Part shown: positions 1 to 49,869 of the stretch, one piece after another | Layout: each line of letters begins with the position of its first letter | Position numbering within the stretch: position 1 is the stretch's first letter | From: Flammeovirga pectinis | Lineage (GTDB): Bacteria; Bacteroidota; Bacteroidia; Cytophagales; Flammeovirgaceae | Direction: 5' to 3' | Assembly (NCBI RefSeq): GCF_003970675.1 | Contig: NZ_CP034563.1 | Span: 687,501-751,500 of the forward strand | DNA length: 64,000 nt | Made by a program: the position numbers and the translations under genes | Notes under the pieces: model-generated | The model's input: the letters and a program-made list of their open reading frames with translations, nothing else | The model's database searches: none | What the model was told of the DNA's origin: nothing

Positions 1-1338
<1,338 letters not shown>

Positions 1339-1344
1339 TTTACG

Positions 1345-37632: not shown

Positions 37633-37659
37633 AGTTGCCAAGTAATCTACTTGGCAACT
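37633..37659. terminator. Bidirectional terminator between MORN gene and rnfB
   Basis: A perfect 12-bp stem agttgccaagta / tacttggcaact (37633-37644 and 37648-37659) with a 3-nt loop. On the minus strand it is followed by TTTCTATTTT, suiting the end of the rnfB transcript. Confidence 0.85.
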
Positions 37660-37682: not shown

Positions 37683-38549
37683 TTATGATATTCCTTCTTT
37701 CATTCTTCCTTTTCTTATAATTTTTTTACTTTCTTTTCCTTTAATAATTCCTCTTTTATCATCAATCCAAACAATTGCTCCAGTTGGGCAACGTTGAATG
37801 GGATCTATAGTTTTATGGTTTTGTTGATAATCCACAGTAGGTAAATTATTAATAAGTTCTATGAGGTTACCTTCTGCATCCATGGCACATTTGCCACAGG
37901 CTGTACAACCAACTTGGCAATCCTCAAGAACATCATCTCCATGATCTAAGTTTTTGCAGTTTACCCAAAGTTTATGACTTATTGGTGTAATAGAAAAGAG
38001 CCATTTCGGACAAGCTTCTACACAGTCTCCGCAACCAGTACATTTATCAACATCTACTTCTGGTAGTCCATTTGCGTTGAGTTGAATAGCATCAAAATCA
38101 CAAGAAACTTCACAATCTCCCAATCCTAAACACCCCCAAAAACAACCCCTTTCTCCTCCAGAAATTAAGGAAGATGCCTGACAGGTTTTCATACCTTGGT
38201 ATTTTGCTCTACTTATTGCAACATTAGTACCGCCACCACAAGCTAAACGGGCAACTCTTTTTTCTTCACTTCCAGGGTCTACCCCTAAGTAAGTGGCTAT
38301 ATTATTTTGACCTTCTTCTGTATTTACTGAACACTTTCCGGGTAGAACACTACCACCTACAACTGCTTCTGCAAAAGGCCGACAACCAGGAAAACCACAC
38401 GCTCCACAATTTGCTTGTGGTAGTAATCCGTTTACTACATCTATTCTGGGGTCTTCGTAAACGTAGAGTTTTTTGTTGGCGACAATTAGCATAAGAGCAA
38501 GTAGTAGTGTGAGTCCACCGAGTGCTGATAGTGCTATAATTATTGTCAT
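37683..38549 (-). CDS. rnfB: Rnf complex subunit B, iron-sulfur protein
   Basis: 288 residues. An N-terminal membrane helix (about 3-24) is followed by the RnfB 4Fe-4S motif C48-x2-C51-x4-C56 (NCGACGFPGC) with a further Cys in LPGKCS. Then come several ferredoxin-like Cys groups: CFWGCLGLGDCEVSC, CTGCGDCVEACP and CQVGCTACGKC with RCPTGAI. RnfB accepts electrons from reduced ferredoxin at the membrane. It is the last gene of the locus, separated from the ferredoxin-NADP reductase gene by 159 nt instead of following rnfA as in standard rnfCDGEAB operons. Confidence 0.93.
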   Translation of the reverse strand: MTIIIALSALGGLTLLLALMLIVANKKLYVYEDPRIDVVNGLLPQANCGACGFPGCRPFAEAVVGGSVLPGKCSVNTEEGQNNIATYLGVDPGSEEKRVARLACGGGTNVAISRAKYQGMKTCQASSLISGGERGCFWGCLGLGDCEVSCDFDAIQLNANGLPEVDVDKCTGCGDCVEACPKWLFSITPISHKLWVNCKNLDHGDDVLEDCQVGCTACGKCAMDAEGNLIELINNLPTVDYQQNHKTIDPIQRCPTGAIVWIDDKRGIIKGKESKKIIRKGRMKEGIS

Positions 38550-38708
38550 GTTCTTTTCTTTAAAAATTTAATATCTTTTTACCAAAAGAAGAGTATGACC
38601 TCTTTTTTTTAAGCTGAAAAATGAAGAAAAAGCAAATTACTGATAATCACTTAGGAGCGTTCATAATCAATAATTTTGCTTTAATCTTCATAATATTATT
38701 TCAGCTGA

Positions 38709-39566
38709 TTAATAAATTACTTCAGCCCATTTATGACCAGCAATTAACTCTGCTTTTCTAACTAACCAAGCATCTTCTGAACCAAGAATCGTAGAAAATG
38801 CTTTATCTAAGTTTACGCGTACTTTTTCATGACCAGCTACATAGATATAGGTGTTGTTTTGCATCAACATATCGTGCAATTCATGTTCTTTGGCCTCAAT
38901 AGCGACATCTAATGCAACAGTGTCTGTCCATTCGGGTCTACTACTAACTGCCTTCATTGCCTCAAAAGTACTTTCATTGTAGTAGTTTGTAAGGTCGTTA
39001 TTTTCATCATTCATATAAGGCATTTCCATACCAGTTCTTGCACCGTAAAATAAGCGAACTTGCCCTTTCCAATCGTGTACTTCTTCGTAGATATGTTTTA
39101 CAAAAGCTCTAAAAGGAGCAATACCAGTTCCCATACCAATTAAAATTAAATTAGCGTTATGGTCTTTTGGTAATTGGAAAGCTAAATCAAATGGCCCAGT
39201 AATAGTGATAGCATCACATACTTTACGATCGCATAAAAAATTAGACCCAATCCCTCTGTAACGTTCTCCACTAAAATCATCTATGTAAGCACATCTTTTC
39301 ACTAATAAAGTAATACGGGTTTTACCATTTACTTTTTCTGGAATATCAGCAACACTATATAAACGATGGTGCTTATTTTGTCCAAACTCTCCCTTTATGT
39401 CTACCAAAACACCAAAACTCTGATTTACTTTACATTCAAAAGAAGGGTCATCAATTTCTAAAACCATCTCTCTTATTTCTTCAGTATTCCTTGGTGTTAA
39501 GCGCGTAGTTCTAATTACTCTTGCTTTGTACTGAATATCTGTTTTATAATCTGCTAAATGTGACAT
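38709..39566 (-). CDS. Plant-type ferredoxin-NADP(H) reductase
   Basis: 285 residues, soluble. The FAD motif is R68-L-Y-S71 (HRLYSVAD), the second flavin segment is GIGSNFLCD, and the NADP-binding loop is GMGTGIAPFRAF from G144, followed by LFYGART. The C-terminus AGHKWAEVIY ends in the aromatic residue that stacks on FAD in plastidic-type FNRs. The enzyme would move electrons between ferredoxin and NADP(H). It lies inside the rnf locus, after rnfA and the small Cys-rich gene and before rnfB, which suggests that it draws on the same ferredoxin pool as the PFOR. Direction of flow cannot be told. Confidence 0.88.
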   Translation of the reverse strand: MSHLADYKTDIQYKARVIRTTRLTPRNTEEIREMVLEIDDPSFECKVNQSFGVLVDIKGEFGQNKHHRLYSVADIPEKVNGKTRITLLVKRCAYIDDFSGERYRGIGSNFLCDRKVCDAITITGPFDLAFQLPKDHNANLILIGMGTGIAPFRAFVKHIYEEVHDWKGQVRLFYGARTGMEMPYMNDENNDLTNYYNESTFEAMKAVSSRPEWTDTVALDVAIEAKEHELHDMLMQNNTYIYVAGHEKVRVNLDKAFSTILGSEDAWLVRKAELIAGHKWAEVIY

Positions 39567-39596
39567 TGTATTATAATTTATTTTATGAATTGGATT

Positions 39597-39797
39597 TTAA
39601 AGATTTGCAGTTTTAATCTGCTTTTTACAGACATTACCACAGTTGCATTTGCCGCATTTACTTCTATCTCCTAGAGCATCGGTATTTTGTGTCTGATCGG
39701 AAAATACCTTTTTCCATATGCTCTGAATTACTACCCATGCAACCATCAGTAAGACAATTGCACAGCTACCAATTAGATAAGAGGTAATGCTATCCAC
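39597..39797 (-). CDS. Small Cys-rich single-pass membrane protein
   Basis: 66 residues. One membrane helix (about 7-28, YLIGSCAIVLLMVAWVVIQSIW) is followed by a short tail with four clustered cysteines: KCGKCNCGNVC. It resembles the FeoB-associated Cys-rich membrane proteins and could hold a metal or iron-sulfur cluster at the membrane surface. Its start overlaps the end of rnfA by 8 nt and the reductase gene follows after 30 nt, so it is co-expressed with the electron-transfer module. A role in it is inferred from position only. Confidence 0.75.
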   Translation of the reverse strand: MDSITSYLIGSCAIVLLMVAWVVIQSIWKKVFSDQTQNTDALGDRSKCGKCNCGNVCKKQIKTANL

Positions 39798-40371
39798 CTA
39801 AACCAGAAAACCCCATAAATGAGAGCGATAATACACCTCCGATCAGTAAGGTAATTACCGTTCCTTTTACCACTTTGGGCACTTCTGCAAATTCTAATTG
39901 TTCTCTTAACCCTGCCATCAACATTAAGGCAATAGTAAAACCTACTCCAGCGCCTAAGGCAAAAACGAAACCTTCTATAAGTCCATAACCTTTGTTGGTT
40001 TGGAAAAGTACCAACCCTAAAATTGCACAGTTAGTGGTTATAAGTGGTAAGAAAATACCTAATGCTCTAAATAGGGCAGGGCTCATTTTCTTCACAATCA
40101 TTTCTACCAATTGTACTGTTGAGGCAATGACCACGATATAGCTAATAAGTTGTAAATAAGGTGCATCTATGGCTGTCAATAAACTATTGATTCCAAAGGC
40201 ACAAACAGAACTAATTAGCATTACAAATGTTACAGCACCACCCATTTTTGTAGCCGTATCCATTTTACCTGATACGCCTAAAAAGGGGCAAATACCTAAG
40301 AAATAGGCCAACACAAAGTTGTTGATCAAACAGGCATTAATAAAGATATTCCATAATGATTCTTGATTCAT
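39790..40371 (-). CDS. rnfA: Rnf complex subunit A, integral membrane
   Basis: 193 residues with six hydrophobic helices. Family motifs: NNFVLAYFLGICPFLGVSG at the N-terminus, the mid-protein ITTNCAILGLVLF, and GVGFTIALMLMAGLREQLE. The Cys in NCAIL and the one in LGICPF are the conserved pair expected to hold an intramembrane iron-sulfur cluster with RnfE. It overlaps rnfE by 4 nt and the next small gene by 8 nt. Confidence 0.95.
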   Translation of the reverse strand: MNQESLWNIFINACLINNFVLAYFLGICPFLGVSGKMDTATKMGGAVTFVMLISSVCAFGINSLLTAIDAPYLQLISYIVVIASTVQLVEMIVKKMSPALFRALGIFLPLITTNCAILGLVLFQTNKGYGLIEGFVFALGAGVGFTIALMLMAGLREQLEFAEVPKVVKGTVITLLIGGVLSLSFMGFSGLGG

Positions 40372-41027
40372 GATGTTGATTTTTTTGTTTTGATGATATT
40401 AAATAATAACAACCAAAATGCCAGTGTAAAAAAGCCTCCTGCAGGTAAGATCATCACAATCCACTCCTGAAATCCTTCTGCAAATATTTCTATTCCGAAG
40501 ATGCTTCTACTACCTAACAATTCTCTCACAACACCCAAGCATAAAAGTCCGAATGTAAATCCTAACCCCATTCCTAAGGCATCTAGAACAGATTTTCCAA
40601 TGGTATTTTTTGAGGCAAAAGCTTCTGCTCTACTCAAAATCAAACAGTTCACTACTATAAGCGAAATGAATGCACCTAAACTTTTATGTAACTCTACACT
40701 AATTGCCTGAATCACATAATCTGTTACGGTTACAAAGGTGGCAATTATTAAAATGTAGGAGGATATACGTACTTGTTTTGGAATGAAATTTCTGAGTAAT
40801 GATATCAGAATATTCGACATCAATAATACAAAGGAAGTGGCTAAACCCATTGCCAAAGCATTTGATGAAGTATTCGTAACAGCAAGTACTGGGCACATTC
40901 CTAAGACCTGTACAAAAACAGGGTTTTCCTTCCATAAGCCTTTTATAAACTCATTGGTAGACTGACTCTGATTTAACCTGTCGGAAAAGCTGCCCTTTTT
41001 ATTTTTATCTCTAAGTTGCTGTACCAT
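40368..41027 (-). CDS. rnfE: Rnf complex subunit E, integral membrane
   Basis: 219 residues from the Met at 41027, which starts just after the rnfG stop; an upstream Met at 41054 would overlap rnfG and adds a poorly supported tail. Motifs: ENPVFVQVLGMCPVLAVTNTSSNALAMG and VVNCLILSRAEAFASKN, with the two conserved Cys, and GLGFTFGLLCLGVVREL. It pairs with RnfA in the membrane core. The N-terminal 20 residues are basic and cytoplasmic. Confidence 0.93.
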   Translation of the reverse strand: MVQQLRDKNKKGSFSDRLNQSQSTNEFIKGLWKENPVFVQVLGMCPVLAVTNTSSNALAMGLATSFVLLMSNILISLLRNFIPKQVRISSYILIIATFVTVTDYVIQAISVELHKSLGAFISLIVVNCLILSRAEAFASKNTIGKSVLDALGMGLGFTFGLLCLGVVRELLGSRSIFGIEIFAEGFQEWIVMILPAGGFFTLAFWLLLFNIIKTKKSTS

Positions 41028-41028
41028 C

Positions 41029-41721
41029 TTATTCTTGTTTTGTGTGTAAAACAAATGCTTCCTTATTTTTATAAATAAACGGTAGCATAACTTCTGTACT
41101 GTTTCTTAGAATATCACCAATGGCACGAGAAGAAATTGTTGCTCCTGTTATTCCATCAATTTCCCAAGCATTGGTTTTCTCTCCGCTTTTTGTAGTAGTA
41201 ATCTTATTTTTAAGAGTTGATAAATCGTCTGTTAAGGTGGCATCCATTGCTGAAAAATTGGCAAGAAAATCAGGGTCTTTTTCAATCTTATCACCTAAAC
41301 CGGGAGTCTCTTTACTTTCTAGTACATAGAAACCTACAATTTGTTGTTTATCGAAACTATATCCATACAATACACTGATAATATCTGCATACCCTTGTCC
41401 TTTTCCATTTATGGCAACACCTACTAATTCATTAGAATCATTGTAACCAGCATAAACTACTTCTTTTACCTTTTTTTGATTACTAACTGGCTCAAAAGTA
41501 CCCTCTACAAAATGGAATGCTTTCGTTTTAGTAATTCCTGGAATCACTTTAAAAATGGCTTCTTCTAATGCCGCTTGTTTAAGCTGAGCAATACGAGGCT
41601 TTGTGGTTTCATAGGTAACAACAATCAGTAGAGCACATAAAATACCGATTCCCACCATGGCTTGAAGCATTTTTAAGCTACTAGTTTCTTCTATTACTGG
41701 AGCTTCTTTTATTGTACTCAT
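41029..41721 (-). CDS. rnfG: Rnf complex subunit G, FMN-bearing
   Basis: 230 residues. One N-terminal membrane helix (about 17-40), then a periplasmic flavin domain. The flavinylation motif DGITGATISS gives T195 as the expected site for FMN attached by ApbE. Conserved KETPGLGDKI precedes it. It overlaps rnfD by 4 nt. No apbE gene is in the window, so the flavin transferase must lie elsewhere. Confidence 0.94.
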   Translation of the reverse strand: MSTIKEAPVIEETSSLKMLQAMVGIGILCALLIVVTYETTKPRIAQLKQAALEEAIFKVIPGITKTKAFHFVEGTFEPVSNQKKVKEVVYAGYNDSNELVGVAINGKGQGYADIISVLYGYSFDKQQIVGFYVLESKETPGLGDKIEKDPDFLANFSAMDATLTDDLSTLKNKITTTKSGEKTNAWEIDGITGATISSRAIGDILRNSTEVMLPFIYKNKEAFVLHTKQE

Positions 41722-42734
41722 GTTTTCTTACGTTTTGATGTTCCGTAAACTCTCGGCTTAACAAAATTATCAATCTGTGGTGCAATGGCATTTCCTAACA
41801 GAATAGCGTACATTACACCTTCTGGAAGTCCACCCCAAACACGAATTACGACAATCAATATGCCTATAAATATGCCATAAATCCATACACCAATAGATGT
41901 AAGCGGTGAGCCTACCATATCCGTTGCCATAAAAAATGCACCGAGTAATAAACCTCCAGAAAATACCATAAATAATGGGTTTGGATACAGAGTAGGATCT
42001 ATACTGAAAAGGATACCACTTAACACGATTACCGTTCCAACTATAGCAGTAGGGATACGCCAATTGGCCATTTTTTTACTGATAAGGTATATTCCTCCAA
42101 GTATAATTATCACACCGCACGTCTCTCCAGTCGAACCACCTGTTAGTCCAAACATTAATTCTGATGTAGGGGCAGTAATATGATCAAACTTAAAAGCAGA
42201 AAGAGGTGTAGCACCAGATGTACCATCAAAAATTGGCTGCATAAAAGGAAGTGCCAATACCGATGAAGCTATTTCTGTAAAACGGTTTCCTTGAAAAGCC
42301 TCATACCAAGTGGTAATAGCAACAGGAAAAGCAGCTTGTAATACAGCTCTTCCGACTAAAGCAGGGTTAAAAACATTATACCCTAATCCACCAAATAAAA
42401 ATTTACCTAATCCAATTGCAATTACACCTCCGCAGAAAGCCATCCATAAAGGGAAAATGGGAGGAAGGGTCAAGCCTAAAAGTAGGCCAGTAATTACGGC
42501 AGACCAATCGTTTACAGTTGTCTCCTTATTCGATAATTTACATAAAATATGTTCGGTAAATACACAAGAAATAACAGATGTAATGAGTACCAAAAAGGCA
42601 CTTAAACCAAAGGCATATACAGCAAAACCAGCAGAAGGAAGTAATGCATAGACCACGTTTTTCATAATTACATCGGTACTGTTGCCTTTTGTAATATGAG
42701 GTGATGTACTAATATTTAATGTTTTATTTAACAT
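41718..42734 (-). CDS. rnfD: Rnf complex subunit D, FMN-bearing membrane protein
   Basis: 338 residues from the Met at 42734 (LNKTLNISTSPHITKG is the family's N-terminus); the Met at 42836 is buried in rnfC. About eight or nine membrane helices are seen. The flavinylation motif GTSGATPLSAFK gives T176 as the FMN site. Conserved NVFNPALVGRAVL and ATDMVGSPLTSIG are present. It overlaps rnfC by 11 nt and rnfG by 4 nt, so tight coupling is clear. Confidence 0.95.
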   Translation of the reverse strand: MLNKTLNISTSPHITKGNSTDVIMKNVVYALLPSAGFAVYAFGLSAFLVLITSVISCVFTEHILCKLSNKETTVNDWSAVITGLLLGLTLPPIFPLWMAFCGGVIAIGLGKFLFGGLGYNVFNPALVGRAVLQAAFPVAITTWYEAFQGNRFTEIASSVLALPFMQPIFDGTSGATPLSAFKFDHITAPTSELMFGLTGGSTGETCGVIIILGGIYLISKKMANWRIPTAIVGTVIVLSGILFSIDPTLYPNPLFMVFSGGLLLGAFFMATDMVGSPLTSIGVWIYGIFIGILIVVIRVWGGLPEGVMYAILLGNAIAPQIDNFVKPRVYGTSKRKKT

Positions 42735-44085
42735 GGGCAGTGGCTTTACGTTTTCTAACAATAGCTTTTGATAACCTAAAATACTGAACCAATGGAATGT
42801 GTGATGGGCACACAAAAGAACAGGAGCCACACTCAAAACAATCCATTAAATTCTGTTCTTCAGCCATTTTATCATACGCTTTGAACTTTGCAAGAATCCA
42901 CATTTTAGAGGGGTTTAACGATAACGGACAAGCATCTACACAAGCACCACATTTAATGCAAGGGAACACTTTTTCTGTCGTTTTTACATCCTTGTCTGTA
43001 AATACCACAATACCAGATGTTCCTTTAGTAATAGAAATATCTAGGTTGGATACCGCCATACCCATCATTGGACCACCTAGATACACTTCAGAAATATTAT
43101 CTTCTAGGCCCACCTCATCCAATACATAACGGAGAGGTGTTCCCATTGGAATGAAATAATTCCCTTTCTTCTTTACACCTGGTCCTGTGATAGTAACCAC
43201 ACGTTCCTGAATTCCCCAACCATGAGGAAGCAAGCGGCCAATTTCTGCAGTTGTTGCTACATTCACTACAACAGCTTTTACATCAATTGGTAAGCCACCC
43301 GAGGGAACTTCAATCCCTAGACAAGAAGTGATCAGCATTTTTTCTGAGCCCTGCGGATATTTTACCGGAACAACTTGTACTGTAATTGGACTATTTTCTG
43401 GAAGTAATGTTTTTAGATGTTCAGCAGCATCAACTTTATTTCCTTCAATACCAATTATACAACGTTTTGCACCTGTAGCTTTTAGCAAGTAATTGATACC
43501 TGTAACGACATCCTTTCCTTGTTCTAGCATTACCCTGTGGTCTGTTGTAAGGTACGGTTCGCACTCAATACCATTAATCAACAAGACTTCACATTCTTTA
43601 TCTTCGGGTACTTTTAATTTTACATGTGTGGGAAAAGCAGCTCCACCAAGTCCTACAATACCAGCTTCTTGAATACCCTTTAAAATTTCTTCTTTCGTTG
43701 CTGTTGCTAGAAGAATAGGGGAACCTTCCGCTATTTCCTGACCGGAAAAAGGGAAGGCTTCCAAGTAAATCCCCGGTGACATTTTACCGCCTACAGTTGG
43801 AACATTCCCGATTTTACGAATGATCCCTGAGACTGGTGCATGCACTGGAACTGATACATAACCACTTGATTTGGCTAGCAATTGCCCACGCACAACTTCT
43901 TGACCCTCTCGAACAATTATTTCCGAAGGAGCACCAATGTGTTGTGCCATGGGAATAATGAGCACTGGAGCAAAAGAAAACTGTCTGATCCGTAGATCTT
44001 TTGTGTCATCTTTATACTCCGGTGGATGAATCCCATGTTTGAATGTATTCTTTTGAATAGTCAACATTTTCATGGTTTTGCTCAT
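42724..44085 (-). CDS. rnfC: Rnf complex subunit C, NADH/ferredoxin iron-sulfur subunit
   Basis: 453 residues. The N-terminus FKHGIHPPEYKDDTK is typical, as are VPVHAPVSGIIRKIG, GIVGLGGAAFPTHVKL (flavin/NADH region) and LLINGIECEPYLTTDHR. Two 4Fe-4S motifs sit near the end: C376 in PCIKCGACVDACPLSL and C416 in CFECGSCSFVCPSHIP. RnfC is the soluble entry point facing NAD(H). Its start overlaps the stop of the oxidoreductase gene. The length is that of the common 440-460-residue form without the long repeats seen in some proteobacteria. Confidence 0.95.
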   Translation of the reverse strand: MSKTMKMLTIQKNTFKHGIHPPEYKDDTKDLRIRQFSFAPVLIIPMAQHIGAPSEIIVREGQEVVRGQLLAKSSGYVSVPVHAPVSGIIRKIGNVPTVGGKMSPGIYLEAFPFSGQEIAEGSPILLATATKEEILKGIQEAGIVGLGGAAFPTHVKLKVPEDKECEVLLINGIECEPYLTTDHRVMLEQGKDVVTGINYLLKATGAKRCIIGIEGNKVDAAEHLKTLLPENSPITVQVVPVKYPQGSEKMLITSCLGIEVPSGGLPIDVKAVVVNVATTAEIGRLLPHGWGIQERVVTITGPGVKKKGNYFIPMGTPLRYVLDEVGLEDNISEVYLGGPMMGMAVSNLDISITKGTSGIVVFTDKDVKTTEKVFPCIKCGACVDACPLSLNPSKMWILAKFKAYDKMAEEQNLMDCFECGSCSFVCPSHIPLVQYFRLSKAIVRKRKATAHVK

Positions 44086-47000
44086 TAATTATATTTCTCT
44101 CCTCTTTTGATTAACTTATCGATGTTCTTTTCAGACATATTTTTAGGTAAACCTGGGTGCAACACCCCTGCAGTACACTTTTCTGCTGCCTTTACTACAT
44201 CTTGATAAGTACCTCCGTCCGAGTTTTTTACAAATGCTTTTTTATCTGAATTGTAAGCAAATATTTTATTATTGATTTTGATACATTCATCACAACCACT
44301 ACAATCTTCGGTTTCTATCCAAGGTGCCATGTAGTTTTCATTTGGGGCAACTTGCGTAGCACTTTCTGTAGTAACTGATATACCCGAAGGCTGAACCAAA
44401 TCTACTAAACTACCACCGTCACCACCAGCAAGTTTCATTAAACCTTGAGCAATATTACCTACAACTTCTGCACGGATTTTCTCTTCTATATTTACTTCCG
44501 GTTCCTCTTTAATACCTGCTAAACCTTTAAGCATAATCCAGAAATCACGTCTTTCTTCGCAAGAGAGTACCATTGGTTCTGCACAAAGAACTCTTGTTAA
44601 ATGCTGTTTTCTATCTACTGCCCAAACAAAAGGGAAGAGACCTTCTCTTTCATCAGCATCCATGTTTAAGAACTCTGCAATTGGCACCATATTTTCGTTC
44701 CAAGCATCACGAGGTACTTTACGAAAGTGCTTTCTAAACCTTGCTTCTGTTAGTGCAAAATCAGCAAATGTCATTTCTAAATCCATTGCTTTTTCTACAC
44801 CATTATCTATATATTTTAATTGGTAAGATGGCCAATCTTTTTCCATGTCTGGGTTACCACTTAAATCGAAGTTTTCTTCTGTGGTTTTCCCATTTTCTGG
44901 ATTGTATTTAAAAATAGGATACGTGCGAGATTCTACAGCCATTTTAGCTTGATGTGCACCCAAATCATCGGCAACACCATGTTCAGGCTGACAGGTTGTA
45001 TACAGGTTGAATAGGGCAGGGCGTTTGGCCATTAATCCATCTATAAAACCCTCTATCATCTGCGTAGTATTTGATAAAGTTCCTTGTAAAACATACGTAT
45101 TACGGTGAGCCATTGCTAACAATCCAATCTCTTTTCGAGGTTCTGCTTTTCCTTTCCAAACCTTGCCGTATTGCGCCATATCAGATACTTGCCCAATAAA
45201 CCCAGATGTACAGGCTTGTCCACCAGTGTTAGAATACACTTGAGTATCTACAACAATTACTTTTATCGGTTTACCCGAAGCCATCATTCTAGATAAATTT
45301 TGAAAACCGATATCATACATAGAACCATCTCCACCAAGCGCAACAACAGGAGGACATAAATGCCATTCTTCATCTGTAAATTGTTCCCAAGTAAAATAGG
45401 TAAAGAAATCATCATGTTCTGATGTGTTGTAGTCTCCACTAAGCTCTAATTCAGCTTTACGAATTGTTCTAAAACTATCCGCCATCTTAGACATGTGTCC
45501 TTCAAAAATACCCATAGCCAAAGAGGTGGAGTCTTGGAATAAATGGTTGGCCCAAGGGAATGGATATGGGTTATATGGATACGTACTACCCCAAACAGAA
45601 GTACATCCTGTTGCATTGGTCATCCCCATATTTGCACGTCCATCTCCAGTAGTTCCGCTAGTATATCTCCATTTTAATTGCTTTAATTGTGCAATAAGTT
45701 GAGAGGTATTTCTTAACCATTCCTGATCAATCGGTTCGCTACCTTTTTCTTGTTCAATTCTACTTGTAATTTCAGCCATTGTCAGATCGCTATCTTGCAT
45801 TTCTGCAACAATCTTAGACATCATGTCGGCATCACTTAAATTGACGGTATCCATCAATTTAACTTGTAGATGACGTTCCATTTTTACAATCAGCTCATCA
45901 AGATAGTTAATGTGCTTCTCAATTCTTGGCATCATTAAAGATTGAACTGTTGCTGTAAATAAATGGACAACAGTTTTCTCTGAACAACCTAAACAAGCAC
46001 CATCGCCAGAGGCAAATTTACCATACGCTTCTTTGTTTAATAGAAGTGTTTCTAAAGGGCCAATTTTTTCTTCGAGGTCATCTATTCTATTGTACTTTTC
46101 TGGAGTATTTGGCAATTCTTCCCATAAGTCCCATTCGCTTCTCAATTTGGCAACAGAACCTTCAGTTTGTATAACAGTTTTTAAAGCATTGTCATCACAA
46201 ACTTCTATACATTCCATACAACCTTTACAAGTTGCTGGGTTTAATGTAATACTAAATAAACCTCCACTTCCTTTTTCTTTTTTCTCATTTAGATGATAAT
46301 AAGGACGTGTAAGTGCGAATTTGAAATCACCTAATTCCTCCTTAAACCAGAGCAACTCTTGTTTTAATTGTTCCGAAGTATTTTCATCTTCAACTGTTTG
46401 ATGAATCACTTCATGAATATGTTCATTTACGGAAATACCTTTGTTCTGTTCTCCATCAAAAAGAGTTCTGATTTTACTTTCCATCTTACGAGTAGCCTTC
46501 GGAAGTTCCTCCACTTTTATATGGTTTTTCTTCACTCTATTTACTACTGTTTCAAGCACATCTTTTAGCTCAGAAACCAACCCAGGTAAAGCAGTATCAG
46601 GGCAAACGGAATAACAATTGCCACAGGCAGTACAATTATCAGGTACCCATTCAGGATGCTCAAAACGAATACCCGTCATGTCTCTAAAAAGAGAAGTTGT
46701 GGCAGGCATTACCGACATGCCAATAAATGGATCAGTAAGGTTATCGTTACCTTGTCCTGTCTGGTAGAAATTACCCGTTTGTTCCCAGAAACGATGTACA
46801 TCACTAAGTTTTGATTCAGAAACAGGACGTTCCTTCATCATTTTAGGTACTTTAAGTACCATACCTTCTTTACCATTAGAAGTACCTAAAACTTTATTTG
46901 TAATCTCATGAACCTCAGTAAATCCACGTTTTACAACACGCATATTATCATCTACTACACGCTGTCCTTTTCCTCCGAATTTATATTGTAATTGGTCTTC

Positions 47001-48983
47001 AATGGCTTTAAGTAAGGCTGCATCAGAAAGACCTGCTTTTTCCATTAAAGGTGATGCAGAGAAAAAGGCACCTTGAAAGGCAATACCCTGCATTCTTAAT
47101 TGTAATTCAGGATCAGTTGCTTCTTCTCTTGCAATCTTAAATCCATCTATATAATAAACGTGTATTTCGTTTTGTATAATTAGCTTTTGATATTGCTTGG
47201 GAATTTCTGCCCATACTTCATCGGCAGTAGTTTTATCACTTTGAACAATAAAACTACCTCCTTTTTTAAGCCCTGCTAAAGCATTGGTATGCTTAAAAAC
47301 GTTAGGGTCTGGAGAAAGAACTACATCCACAAAATAATACTCGCAATTAATACGAATAGGCTCTGGTGCAGCTGCTAAATAATAAGTAGTAGGTTGCCCT
47401 TTTTTTTCCGATCCATATTTGGGGTTTGCTTTAATATCGTACCCAAGTAAATCGAACAATGTCATTGCTAGATTTTTACCCGTAGTAATTGCTCCCCAAC
47501 CTCCAACAGAGTGGAAACGTACCGTTATTGCCCCTTTAGGCATAAGGTTTGGGTTTTCAGAACCACGCACAGACAAATCTTGAATGTTTGGATAAGCGTC
47601 TTTAATTGACTCTTGATATTGACGCTGTTTTGGTGTGAAAGCGTGTTCACGAACAAAATCAATAGATAAGTAGAATTGCTTTTTCTGTTTTCCTTCAGGA
47701 AGCATATTTTCTACTGCTCCAATAATACCTTCTGGCTGTAAATCTCTCGATCCCATACCAAAAGAGCCAGAATAAAGTGCAGGGAATTCGTTTGGCTTAT
47801 AACTTGCTAAAGTGGGGTAAGGTTTATTTTTATTACTAGCACCATTTTCAATACATTTAGTAAGCACCGCTCTAATCTCTCTAATAATTGGAGCATCTTC
47901 TGCAAGTGGTTGGTCTAAACGTTCTAAAACAGTAATCCCTTTTTTACCTTTTAAAACCTTACTTATTAGGTCGGCAGGGAAGGGCCTAAACATTACCAAA
48001 TCCACAACGCCAACTTTTAAACCTCTAGTTTCTCTAAGATAATCTACAACAACTTCTGCTGAGGTAACCACAGAGCCTTGTCCTAAAATAAGGTAATCAG
48101 CATCTTCAATTTTGTAGGTCATTACACGTTCGTATAAACGACCTGTAAGTGCAGCAAAATCTTTAAATGCCTTGTCTGTAAGTTCTTTTATATGATCAAA
48201 GAAGAAAGGACGTTGTGCAGCCACAGATTGCATATACGAATCTTGATTCTGTACAATACCAGCCATTAAAGGATTATCTACATCCCAAATTTCTGGAATT
48301 CTTCTTCTCTTTTCTCCATAAATAATTTTTTGAGCTGCAGTGGGGGTATCAATAATGTCATCTGGTCGCCCTAAAAATTCTTTGATTAATTCGCGTTCAG
48401 GAAGCGATAAAGATTCAATAAGATGAGTAGTTAAAAAACCATCCTGTGCAATAACTCCAGGCGTTAAAGACATTTCTGCAATTTTATGAGAAATGATATT
48501 TAAATCGGCTACATGTTGTGCTTTTTTGGCAAACATCTGAAAGAATCCAGTATCGTCAATGGCATGGTAGTCGTCATGACCTGCATGTACATTTAACGTA
48601 GATTTTGTCATTGCTCTAGCACCTATGTTTAGCACATACGTTAAACGTTTACCTACAGCGGCATATAAAGATTCGTGCATATAGGCTATCCCTTGTCCAG
48701 AAGAAAAGTTAGCAGCACGTTGCCCTGTCATAGATAAACCAGCAGTAACAGCTGCAGCAGCATGTTCTCCTTCTGGTTCTATAAAAATAAGGGGTTTATC
48801 CGATATATTTAAATGTCCTTTTGCTGCTTCTTCTGCCCAATATTCTCCCATCTGAGTAGAAGGGGTAATAGGGTACGCACCTGCAGCATCAGTAGATTCT
48901 CTTTCGCACATAATAGCGGCAGTATTGCCATCCATTGCTACGCGAACACCAGGATATTTTACTTTGGAATTTTTTTGATCCAT
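44085..48983 (-). CDS. nifJ: Pyruvate:ferredoxin oxidoreductase, extra-long form
   Basis: 1632 residues; the classic homodimeric enzyme has about 1,200. Order seen: alpha domains I-II (CERESTDAAGAYPITPSTQ to about 440), gamma domain (VRFHSVGGWGAITTGKNLA, about 490-680), a two-cluster ferredoxin domain (C784 in CTACGNCYSVCP, C919 in CKGCMECIEVCD), the proximal-cluster Cys pair at C997 and C1000 (GACLGC), its third ligand at C1127 (NATGC), the TPP/Mg site GGDGSMYDIG with NTGGQ, and TTCQPEHG as the probable fourth ligand. A further Cys-rich unit (DCSGCDECIKIN, KCTAGVLHPG) closes the protein. The window between C1000 and C1127 is a long insertion. It oxidises pyruvate to acetyl-CoA. First gene of the rnf operon. 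Confidence 0.92.
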   Translation of the reverse strand: MDQKNSKVKYPGVRVAMDGNTAAIMCERESTDAAGAYPITPSTQMGEYWAEEAAKGHLNISDKPLIFIEPEGEHAAAAVTAGLSMTGQRAANFSSGQGIAYMHESLYAAVGKRLTYVLNIGARAMTKSTLNVHAGHDDYHAIDDTGFFQMFAKKAQHVADLNIISHKIAEMSLTPGVIAQDGFLTTHLIESLSLPERELIKEFLGRPDDIIDTPTAAQKIIYGEKRRRIPEIWDVDNPLMAGIVQNQDSYMQSVAAQRPFFFDHIKELTDKAFKDFAALTGRLYERVMTYKIEDADYLILGQGSVVTSAEVVVDYLRETRGLKVGVVDLVMFRPFPADLISKVLKGKKGITVLERLDQPLAEDAPIIREIRAVLTKCIENGASNKNKPYPTLASYKPNEFPALYSGSFGMGSRDLQPEGIIGAVENMLPEGKQKKQFYLSIDFVREHAFTPKQRQYQESIKDAYPNIQDLSVRGSENPNLMPKGAITVRFHSVGGWGAITTGKNLAMTLFDLLGYDIKANPKYGSEKKGQPTTYYLAAAPEPIRINCEYYFVDVVLSPDPNVFKHTNALAGLKKGGSFIVQSDKTTADEVWAEIPKQYQKLIIQNEIHVYYIDGFKIAREEATDPELQLRMQGIAFQGAFFSASPLMEKAGLSDAALLKAIEDQLQYKFGGKGQRVVDDNMRVVKRGFTEVHEITNKVLGTSNGKEGMVLKVPKMMKERPVSESKLSDVHRFWEQTGNFYQTGQGNDNLTDPFIGMSVMPATTSLFRDMTGIRFEHPEWVPDNCTACGNCYSVCPDTALPGLVSELKDVLETVVNRVKKNHIKVEELPKATRKMESKIRTLFDGEQNKGISVNEHIHEVIHQTVEDENTSEQLKQELLWFKEELGDFKFALTRPYYHLNEKKEKGSGGLFSITLNPATCKGCMECIEVCDDNALKTVIQTEGSVAKLRSEWDLWEELPNTPEKYNRIDDLEEKIGPLETLLLNKEAYGKFASGDGACLGCSEKTVVHLFTATVQSLMMPRIEKHINYLDELIVKMERHLQVKLMDTVNLSDADMMSKIVAEMQDSDLTMAEITSRIEQEKGSEPIDQEWLRNTSQLIAQLKQLKWRYTSGTTGDGRANMGMTNATGCTSVWGSTYPYNPYPFPWANHLFQDSTSLAMGIFEGHMSKMADSFRTIRKAELELSGDYNTSEHDDFFTYFTWEQFTDEEWHLCPPVVALGGDGSMYDIGFQNLSRMMASGKPIKVIVVDTQVYSNTGGQACTSGFIGQVSDMAQYGKVWKGKAEPRKEIGLLAMAHRNTYVLQGTLSNTTQMIEGFIDGLMAKRPALFNLYTTCQPEHGVADDLGAHQAKMAVESRTYPIFKYNPENGKTTEENFDLSGNPDMEKDWPSYQLKYIDNGVEKAMDLEMTFADFALTEARFRKHFRKVPRDAWNENMVPIAEFLNMDADEREGLFPFVWAVDRKQHLTRVLCAEPMVLSCEERRDFWIMLKGLAGIKEEPEVNIEEKIRAEVVGNIAQGLMKLAGGDGGSLVDLVQPSGISVTTESATQVAPNENYMAPWIETEDCSGCDECIKINNKIFAYNSDKKAFVKNSDGGTYQDVVKAAEKCTAGVLHPGLPKNMSEKNIDKLIKRGEKYN

Positions 48984-49869
48984 AATCGTTGGTCTTTTGG
49001 CTCTTGTTTGTCTTGTGTGTTGTTTATAAAATCTAGTGTGTATTGTTCCAGTATCATATTTTAAAAAAAAACATGATTTACTATAAAATACAATCGGTTA
49101 CTACCTTGAACAGAAATCAAAAATTTCTATCAAGTAATGGTGTTTTATTATAAAATGTGTTTGTCGAACCTTATGTGTTGTTTAAGATAGTTAGTAAACA
49201 AATAAGTGGTTTGTATCATTTTTAATTGTGTTCACTAATTACCTCTTTAGTTATTGGAATCTACCGTTGTTTATTGGTCGGTTAAAGATAGATTTTGTGT
49301 ATGGTTTTTTAGGTTACGCTCAATTTCATTTCTTACACCATTTAGACATGGTCAATCACTTGTTTTTAAAAAGACAAATTGAGCTAATGTGGCTTAAATC
49401 TTTTACTCATTTTCTTGTAATCTAATTTCAATTTAATAAGTGTTGTTTAGAACATTATATGATAAAAGTATTAACAAATGGATTTGTTTATCATGATACT
49501 GATCAGGTAAATAAGTGACGAAAATCAACGTTAAATTATAAATCTTATTTTTCGAATAAATAAAGGAAAGGATTGGAGGTTAAATCATTTACTACTTAAA
49601 AAGGTGATTTAAGGCTGTTTTAAGTGTGTTTACAAACATTTTATATCAATTGAACTGTTTGTAAAATAGCTAATTTCAATTGATTATAACTTAAATAATC
49701 AATATTTTGAATCAACAATAAATACTCATATTTCACCTTTTTTAGTACAAAAAAGCATGAATAATATTTAGACTAATTTTAAATAAACAATCTATTTTAT
49801 CATCAAATTTAATTAGTGTAAAAAATACATTAAAAATTTTTGTTTTTTAATTCTTTTCGATAAATTGAG
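48984..49869. other. Long intergenic region upstream of the nifJ-rnf operon
   Basis: 886 nt without a credible gene. On the minus side it must carry the operon's control region. TTGTTTA (49178-49184) and TAAACAA (49195-49201) form an inverted pair 10 nt apart. A 9-bp inverted repeat gctcaattt / aaattgagc occurs at 49318-49326 and 49376-49384. No exact TAnnTTTG element was found on the minus strand near the nifJ start. A 65-codon frame at 49228 looks spurious. Confidence 0.5.

What the first reader, a model, noticed from the sequence alone, without database searches (positions are those of the whole stretch)
37683..48983. One locus joins a 2-oxoacid oxidoreductase, a full Rnf complex and a ferredoxin-NADP reductase
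Order on the minus strand: nifJ, rnfC, rnfD, rnfG, rnfE, rnfA, a small Cys-rich membrane protein, a plant-type FNR, then rnfB. Genes from nifJ to the Cys-rich protein overlap or abut. All Rnf cofactor motifs are intact. Placing a source of reduced ferredoxin and two exits, to NAD through Rnf and to NADP through FNR, in one unit suggests a balanced ferredoxin hub. rnfB is displaced from its normal place after rnfA by two inserted genes.
Basis: partly seen in the sequence, partly recalled or inferred. Interest (0 to 1): 0.6.

Follow-up and report, generated by a model that had tools for sequence, protein, structure and literature searches.

The report
A conserved nine-gene Rnf electron hub
Bacteria of one large phylum, and a few methane-eating bacteria, carry the same nine genes in the same order, apparently encoding a membrane ion pump, an enzyme that feeds it electrons from 2-oxoacids, a second flavin-type electron outlet and a small new cysteine-rich helper protein: a variant of a known machine that we did not find described.

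Summary
In the window (a Flammeovirga genome) nine minus-strand genes run nifJ-rnfC-D-G-E-A-cys-FNR-rnfB, with one strong terminator-like hairpin after rnfB. The order is the same in 64 of 80 named loci and 12 of 13 unnamed ones; the other 17 are cut by contig ends and show no other order. Most were found through the FNR, so its loss could not be seen there; independently, in 395 phylum genomes full-length nifJ and clear cys matches occur only in the two that hold the block.

Corrections. rnfB-last is common in Bacteroidota, often with apbE in the gap, so rnfB is not newly displaced. The FNR has the plant-type fold, but the equivalents of two NADP contacts (Lys244, Tyr246) are missing in 81 of 81: 'exit to NADP' is unproven. 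NifJ is a distinct ~1635-residue enzyme with its own C-terminal ferredoxin. The Cys-rich protein is a new small family standing where other Rnf loci have RseC (45 of 47; 0 of 80 here); its likeness to NqrM is weak and partial.

Best reading: a 2-oxoacid-fed, ion-pumping electron hub. Direction, substrate and pyridine nucleotide are inferred.

The parts
44085..48983 (-). nifJ: long 2-oxoacid:ferredoxin oxidoreductase, 1632 aa, with two ferredoxin-like cluster motifs, a TPP domain and an extra C-terminal single-cluster ferredoxin domain (residues about 1557-1604)
   Evidence: Pfam/NCBIfam; PDB PFOR match; C-terminal Cys 1561, 1564, 1567, 1603 in 61 of 61; only POR_N match at E 1e-10 in this genome
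42724..44085 (-). rnfC
   Evidence: TIGR01945 488 bits; eight cluster Cys conserved 68 of 68
41718..42734 (-). rnfD (ORF opens at TTG 42836; ATG at 42734 more likely)
   Evidence: TIGR01946 324 bits; start judged
41029..41721 (-). rnfG, flavinylation motif TGAT
   Evidence: TIGR01947 102.9 bits, just over the cut-off of 102; motif
40368..41027 (-). rnfE (ORF opens at TTG 41054; ATG at 41027)
   Evidence: TIGR01948 236 bits; start
39790..40371 (-). rnfA
   Evidence: TIGR01943 238 bits
39597..39797 (-). cys: 66-aa protein, one N-terminal helix, C-x2-C-x-C-x3-C near the C-terminus; small family found so far only in this type of rnf unit
   Evidence: ORF; no Pfam/NCBIfam match over cut-off; found in 78 of 80 named loci, the other two cut 87 and 405 nt before the FNR; clear matches in 2 of 395 genomes; helix model
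38709..39566 (-). FNR: plant-type ferredoxin-NAD(P) reductase-like flavoprotein, 285 aa
   Evidence: 2'-phosphate site
37683..38549 (-). rnfB, polyferredoxin subunit
   Evidence: TIGR01944 75 bits; 20 Cys conserved 78 of 78
37633..37659 (-). intrinsic terminator-like hairpin (12 bp) after rnfB
48984..49869 (-). upstream region without a called gene of note, presumed to hold the promoter
   Evidence: inference

Best explanation
The nine genes form one operon-like unit whose Rnf part has one origin. NifJ oxidises a 2-oxoacid (perhaps pyruvate) to acyl-CoA and CO2 and passes the low-potential electrons along its clusters to its own C-terminal ferredoxin domain. From there they enter RnfB and run through the Rnf membrane core, which pumps Na+ or H+ while RnfC reduces NAD+; the FNR gives the same electrons a second outlet to a soluble pyridine nucleotide, NADP+ or NAD+. 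The Cys-rich membrane protein is an assembly or Fe-S handling factor for this Rnf type, standing in for RseC. Shown: gene content, order, conservation, co-occurrence, conserved Cys, fused ferredoxin domain by profile. Inferred: substrate, direction, electron path, pumping, role of the Cys protein, nucleotide used by the FNR.
For: Same order in 64 of 80 named and 12 of 13 unnamed loci, the rest cut by contig ends. In 395 phylum genomes NifJ matches over the full length occur only in G000 and G064 (G152 and G162 match over half or less at 44%), and clear Cys-profile matches only in the same two (two further hits at E about 5e-4 lie in frames of 29 and 36 aa). The Rnf core of 17 sampled loci is one clade, 100/100. 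Pairwise distances of nifJ, cys, FNR and five rnf genes correlate, r 0.65-0.94, 27 loci. The Methylomicrobium copy L141 nests with a Mariniradius copy (100/95), so the block moved whole. Terminator-like hairpin after rnfB; FNR-rnfB gap 20 nt or less in 20 of 78 loci, though over 150 nt in 19. C-terminal ferredoxin Cys 61 of 61. Sister locus L064 pairs split OFOR parts, one bearing that ferredoxin domain, with rnfB and rnfCDGEA. In G000 this NifJ is the only POR_N match.
Against: No expression or biochemical data. G000 has three E1 dehydrogenase genes of PDH, OGDH and a third size, so NifJ need not serve ordinary aerobic 2-oxoacid oxidation. NifJ scores 425 bits against a PFOR equivalog cut-off of 911, so the substrate is uncertain. 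The FNR lacks two NADP contacts. Rnf is reversible (review PMC12174285, abstract and passages). Some loci have long FNR-rnfB gaps, so rnfB may have its own promoter there.
Confidence: 0.55

Rival explanations
1. The unit runs in reverse: Rnf uses NADH and the ion gradient to make reduced ferredoxin, which drives NifJ as a carboxylating synthase and/or the FNR as an energy-linked source of NADPH.
For: The Bacteroidota hosts tested have E1 dehydrogenase genes for the forward reactions and G000 has a separate NQR-type locus; Azotobacter Rnf1 is described as running NADH to ferredoxin (PMC12174285, passages).
Against: The FNR's NADP site is incomplete. KorA-like genes, of another ferredoxin-linked OFOR, follow rnfB in 3 of 13 unnamed loci, which suits electron input, though OFORs also run backwards.
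Confidence: 0.25
2. The unit supplies reduced ferredoxin for nitrogen fixation, as the names nifJ and rnf suggest.
For: The two methanotroph genomes tested (G527, G528) carry four nitrogenase-family genes each.
Against: 0 of 16 Bacteroidota genomes with the block have a PF00148 match at E 1e-10, the window's genome included.
Confidence: 0.03
3. This is an intermediate on the way from Rnf to NQR: an FNR and a small Cys-rich membrane protein already beside rnfCDGEA, with rnfB still present.
For: Colinear with nqrABCDE plus nqrF; NQR is held to have arisen in Chlorobi/Bacteroidetes by gaining an FNR-family reductase (PMC4014512, passages). In the quick RnfE tree this clade, NQR and the CDGEA-B Rnf clade group together at SH-aLRT 89.
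Against: The concatenated tree, drawn with NQR as outgroup, puts this clade with L064 and then the CDGEA-B Rnf clade (95/88), and the RnfA part leaves NQR's place open. The FNR scores 114.6 bits with a PetH model and 49.8 with NqrF and is too short for NqrF's 2Fe-2S and membrane parts.
Confidence: 0.05
4. The Cys-rich protein and FNR are bystanders kept in place by a recently spread operon.
For: The block has moved between phyla at least once; the FNR was the search query, so loci that lost it would be missed.
Against: The four Cys are conserved in 78 or 79 of 79 rows while the protein as a whole falls to 25-47% identity with the window's; cys, nifJ and rnfB, which were not queries, are present wherever the contig reaches far enough; in 395 genomes cys and full-length nifJ occur in the same two.
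Confidence: 0.07

Closest known systems
Rnf complex (ferredoxin:NAD+ oxidoreductase)
   Same: All six subunits with their Cys and flavin motifs; B-last order as in 25 of 47 other loci of the phylum
   Different: A separate clade with nifJ, cys and FNR built in; no RseC and no ApbE gene in any of 80 fetched loci (54 of them 18 kb or longer)
Pyruvate:ferredoxin oxidoreductase (PFOR, NifJ; PDB 6cin, 1b0p)
   Same: POR_N, PFOR_II, POR, ferredoxin-like and TPP domains; YPITPS and the Arg of GARAM align with PFOR
   Different: About 460 residues longer than 6cin, inserts in the ferredoxin-TPP region, extra C-terminal ferredoxin; under half the PFOR equivalog cut-off
Plant-type FNR (PetH; BoxA is the next nearest profile)
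   Same: FAD motif R-x-Y-S (80 of 80), VKR Lys (79 of 80, Arg 1), GTGIAPFR, aromatic C-terminus (Tyr 67, Phe 13 of 80)
   Different: Lys244 and Tyr246 equivalents absent in 81 of 81, active-site Cys272 replaced (Ala 80, Val 1)
NqrM (PF04400, DUF539)
   Same: Under 80 aa, one N-terminal helix, four Cys near the C-terminus followed by basic residues, gene beside a Rnf/NQR core; 15 of 30 NqrM frames from Methylococcales relatives share C-x-C-x3-C
   Different: No PF04400 match. The best-scoring NqrMs have C-x12-C-x2-C-x3/4-C (14 of 30). Profile match 62.7% with 13 NqrMs picked for the pattern, 54.9% over 18 columns with all 30, 1.1% with the 14 best-scoring ones
RseC/MucC
   Same: Small Cys-containing membrane protein coded beside other Rnf operons
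   Different: No similarity by profile (2.3%); its Cys lie in the N-terminal part before the membrane stretch
NQR
   Same: Homologous membrane core, FNR-family gene after the nqrE/rnfA position
   Different: This unit has RnfB and RnfC, and its FNR has no ferredoxin domain; not shown to be a sister in the trees

Membership tests
Rnf complex | Subunits A, B, C, D, E, G over family cut-offs | tested here: met
Rnf complex | RnfA/RnfE Cys for the membrane 2Fe-2S cluster, RnfG/RnfD flavinylation motifs, RnfB and RnfC Fe-S Cys | tested here: met
   that these residues have those roles is recalled
Rnf complex | Ion-coupled ferredoxin:NAD+ activity | not testable with these tools
   no biochemistry
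PFOR (TIGR02176 equivalog) | Score over the curated cut-off | tested here: not met
   425.3 vs 911.35 bits
2-oxoacid:acceptor oxidoreductase superfamily | POR_N, PFOR_II, POR, 4Fe-4S and TPP domains present | tested here: met
Plant-type FNR fold family | Alignment over FAD and NAD(P) domains with solved FNRs | tested here: met
   profile of 14 FNRs: 7.1e-37 with 3vo2, 1.3e-36 with 1fnb
NADP-specific FNR | 2'-phosphate contacts Ser234, Arg235, Lys244, Tyr246 (spinach numbering, recalled) | tested here: not met
   Lys and Tyr equivalents absent in 81 of 81; a Ser/Thr-x-Arg that might replace the first two in 77 of 81, His in place of Arg in 4 (mapped)
NqrM (PF04400) | Match to the Pfam model | tested here: not met
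   no hit listed for 52 members at E 10
NqrM (PF04400) | Profile similarity and Cys spacing of typical members | tested here: inconclusive
   54.9% with 30 NqrMs but 1.1% with the 14 best-scoring; spacing shared only with the Methylococcales-type half
RseC/MucC | Profile similarity | tested here: not met
   2.3%; best Pfam E 1.5 in 9 of 52 members
NQR | Clade with NqrB/D/E and NqrA, NqrF genes | tested here: not met
   RnfA, E, D and G score higher with rnf than with nqr models

The most novel reading that the evidence does not exclude
The nine genes encode one physical supercomplex: a membrane-bound, ion-pumping 2-oxoacid:NAD(P)+ oxidoreductase in which the ferredoxin domain fused to NifJ docks on RnfB and on the FNR, so that no free ferredoxin is needed, and the Cys-rich protein is a dedicated maturation factor for the RnfA/E cluster that displaced RseC and does the job NqrM does for NQR.
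Probability: 0.2. Interest if true: 0.78.

Novelty: new variant of a known kind. Interest (0 to 1): 0.6.

Why it matters
The review seen (PMC12174285, abstract and passages) treats Rnf mainly in anaerobes, diazotrophs and archaea. Here a distinct Rnf type is wired in one fixed gene unit to its likely electron source and to a second flavin outlet, in Bacteroidota genomes that also hold PDH- and OGDH-sized E1 genes, and it has passed whole to methanotrophs. Three questions become directly testable: whether an OFOR and Rnf work as one complex, what an FNR does beside Rnf, and whether the Rnf membrane cluster needs its own maturation factor, which is reported for NQR (NqrM) and which I did not find assigned for Rnf.

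Tried and rejected
Nitrogen fixation: rejected for Bacteroidota, 0 of 16 genomes. NQR ancestor: not supported; the A/E tree is a quick one with a long-branch warning and leaves NQR's place open. Cys protein as a general Rnf or NQR factor: no cys match in 47 other Rnf loci (tblastn E below 0.5), in 393 of 395 genomes apart from two chance-like hits, or in 14 NQR loci (best E 0.86). Cys protein as PF04400 NqrM, RseC, FeoB-associated or CcoS: no match over cut-off. My first NqrM comparison (62.7%) used 13 NqrMs that had passed a filter for the wanted Cys pattern, so it leaned towards likeness; all 30 frames found among 32 loci give 54.9%, the 14 best-scoring give 1.1%. KorAB as a standard tenth part: only L023, L026, L028; 0 of 64 named loci with at least 4 kb after rnfB. 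RseC or ApbE near the block: 0 of 80 (about 10 kb each side at most). Sigma-70 promoter scan: 55 sites against 43.7 (sd 7.4) in shuffles, uninformative. AlphaFold of the Cys protein: confident helix 2-32, low confidence for the Cys part. Paper searches (open-licence PMC only; listings read, and passages of five papers) showed no description of this unit; that is weak evidence of absence.
Full report
What is there. The window lies in a genome of 6.68 Mb in 3 contigs (G000, contig C2). Same-genus genomes match records named Flammeovirga: contig lengths of G004, G005, G001, G003 equal those of L076-L079. Pfam and NCBIfam name rnfC, D, G, E, A, B, the FNR NAD-binding domain and the OFOR domains of nifJ. 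The small protein has no match over a cut-off. A 12-bp terminator-like hairpin follows rnfB; the scan's only other site on this strand is a 5-bp stem inside nifJ, and the scan as a whole found fewer sites (3) than shuffles (7.5).

Conservation. With the FNR as query, 14 of 147 relatives had a match at E 1e-20: all 9 of the genus, one other genus of the family, and 4 genomes of two other families. The 13 loci outside the window keep the order; in L028 the contig starts inside rnfD, in L026 inside nifJ. A scan of named genomes with the FNR alignment gave 210 confirmed relatives, of which the tool keeps the best 80; I saw only these. Sixty-four have all nine genes in order on one strand (63 plus L148, which has an extra rnfA fragment upstream); 16 are cut by contig ends, and none shows another order. 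In L117 the contig starts 159 nt before rnfA and those bases do not hold the end of rnfE, so the spacing there is longer or rnfE lies elsewhere. Four of the 80 are the same genomes as unnamed ones. By record title they include Flammeovirga, Cyclobacteriaceae, Saprospiraceae, Flavobacteriaceae and three Gammaproteobacteria, two of them Methylomicrobium sp. wino1 and Methylotuvimicrobium buryatense. Because the FNR was the query, these sets cannot show blocks that lack it.

Co-occurrence. In an even draw of 395 phylum genomes, 49 have an rnfC over the cut-off. Two of these, G000 and G064, hold the block. In the same kind of draw the Cys profile finds clear matches only in these two, plus two hits at E about 5e-4 in frames of 29 and 36 aa, and NifJ matches over its full length only in these two; G152 and G162 match over residues 7-810 and 8-700 at 44%. 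I fetched all 47 other Rnf loci: none shows cys or FNR.

Position of rnfB. Of those 47 loci, 22 have rnfB before rnfC (L064 at 4.1 kb) and 25 after rnfA: 9 adjoining, 16 with 1.0-2.5 kb between. The six gaps I looked into all hold an ApbE gene. ApbE attaches the FMN of Rnf and NQR subunits (review PMC12174285, passages). In the concatenated RnfD-E-A tree of 50 sampled loci, rooted on NQR, the window's type (17 loci) is one clade (100/100) with L064 as sister (100/99), then nine loci that all have rnfB after rnfA (95/88); the remaining Rnf loci are B-first except L046. So rnfB-last is probably inherited, and the slot between rnfA and rnfB often holds accessory genes.

RseC exchange. A profile from six RseC genes finds RseC in 45 of 47 other Rnf loci (not in L052 and L064; the six seeds are among the 45) and in 0 of 80 loci of the window's type; an ApbE profile from four seeds gives 23 of 47 and 0 of 80. 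The Cys protein shows the reverse: found in 78 of 80 named loci, the other two being cut 87 and 405 nt before the FNR, and in none of the 47. L064, the sister, has neither in view. This looks like loss of RseC followed by gain of the Cys protein; RseC elsewhere in those genomes was not searched.

The Cys protein. About 60-87 aa as called, one N-terminal helix (model), invariant W, Q, W, F, D, R and the first, second and fourth Cys of C-x2-C-x-C-x3-C in 52 aligned sequences, chosen from 74 different ones. Exceptions: L118 has a changed Cys pattern; L127, L134 and L137 have one more residue before the last Cys. In control loci 3 of 4208 small ORFs have the pattern and none has pattern plus helix. 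NqrM: I first aligned 13 frames that had passed a pattern filter and got 62.7% over 22 columns. On checking, 30 of 32 NqrM loci give a frame: 15 have C-x(6-8)-C-x-C-x3-C, 14, the best-scoring ones, have C-x12-C-x2-C-x3/4-C, one (L196) fits neither. Against all 30 the match is 54.9% over 18 columns, against the 14 it is 1.1%. RseC gives 2.3% from six sequences. So the likeness to NqrM is one of build (small, one helix, four Cys, beside a Rnf/NQR core) and not of demonstrated descent. PF04400 was not found over its cut-off in 30 genomes of the phylum, 27 of which have an RnfD/NqrB-family gene; the two methanotrophs have it, in L177 beside what look like nqrF and apbE by eye.

NifJ. 1632 aa; relatives up to 1643 in the frames used. 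Cys of the two ferredoxin-like sites and of the C-terminal one (C1561, 1564, 1567, 1603) are conserved 61 of 61. All 18 genomes tested with the block have one long OFOR frame (1634-1677 codons; 1534 in G044, cut by the contig end); in G000 it is the only POR_N match. PF00676 finds three E1 genes in G000, in frames of 339, 940 and 817 codons; calling them PDH, OGDH and a third type rests on length.

FNR. A profile of 14 FNRs aligns with solved plant FNRs over nearly the whole length. At the places of Lys244 and Tyr246, 81 of 81 FNRs have neither Lys nor Tyr, by the profile and the MAFFT alignment alike. At Ser234-Arg235 the two alignments differ; a Ser/Thr-x-Arg stands there or beside it in 77 of 81. 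The roles of these residues are recalled. NADP or NAD use is open.

Mechanism. The fixed unit, the fused ferredoxin and the sister locus with OFOR parts beside rnfB make direct electron feeding of Rnf by NifJ the most likely reading; direction and exits are not decided by sequence. Nitrogenase-family genes are absent in 16 of 16 Bacteroidota tested and present in both methanotrophs.

Literature. Seen: PMC12174285 outline, abstract and passages; passages of PMC4014512 (it gives rnfBCDGEA as the Chlorobi/Bacteroidetes order, one of the arrangements seen here), PMC13108547, PMC9502895 and PMC10434189. Kostyrko 2016 on NqrM is not held and is known only through the review's passage.

Noticed in passing
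L148 3-224: A partial rnfA-like frame (57% identity) ends directly upstream of the block's nifJ in Lewinellaceae bacterium Ww617, as if two rnf operons stood in tandem.
   Followed up: no
L023 14673-18999, L026 from 10888, L028 4753-9021: KorA-like (and in L023 and L028 KorB-like) genes after rnfB in three unnamed relatives; no KorA-like match in 64 named loci with at least 4 kb downstream.
   Followed up: partly
L064 (G277): Sister Rnf locus with OFOR parts carrying the same C-terminal ferredoxin, rnfB upstream of rnfCDGEA, and no RseC, cys or FNR in view.
   Followed up: partly
L032, L036, L040: In another Rnf lineage of the same order an ordinary-length PFOR, a dihydroorotate-dehydrogenase-like gene, a flavodoxin-like gene, an unknown gene and RseC precede rnfBCDGEA (names partly by eye).
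   Followed up: no
30 genomes: No PF04400 NqrM over cut-off although 27 of 30 have RnfD/NqrB-family genes and 14 NQR-type loci were read, so NQR there may mature its cluster without NqrM or with a diverged one.
   Followed up: no
L177-L208: Two kinds of NqrM Cys spacing within one order: C-x(6-8)-C-x-C-x3-C (15 of 30) and C-x12-C-x2-C-x3/4-C (14 of 30).
   Followed up: partly
window 1-1341 and 1464-1575: End of a 23S rRNA gene and a 5S rRNA gene at the window's start.
   Followed up: no
window 48984-49869: Nearly 890 bp without a called gene of note upstream of nifJ, long for a promoter region.
   Followed up: no
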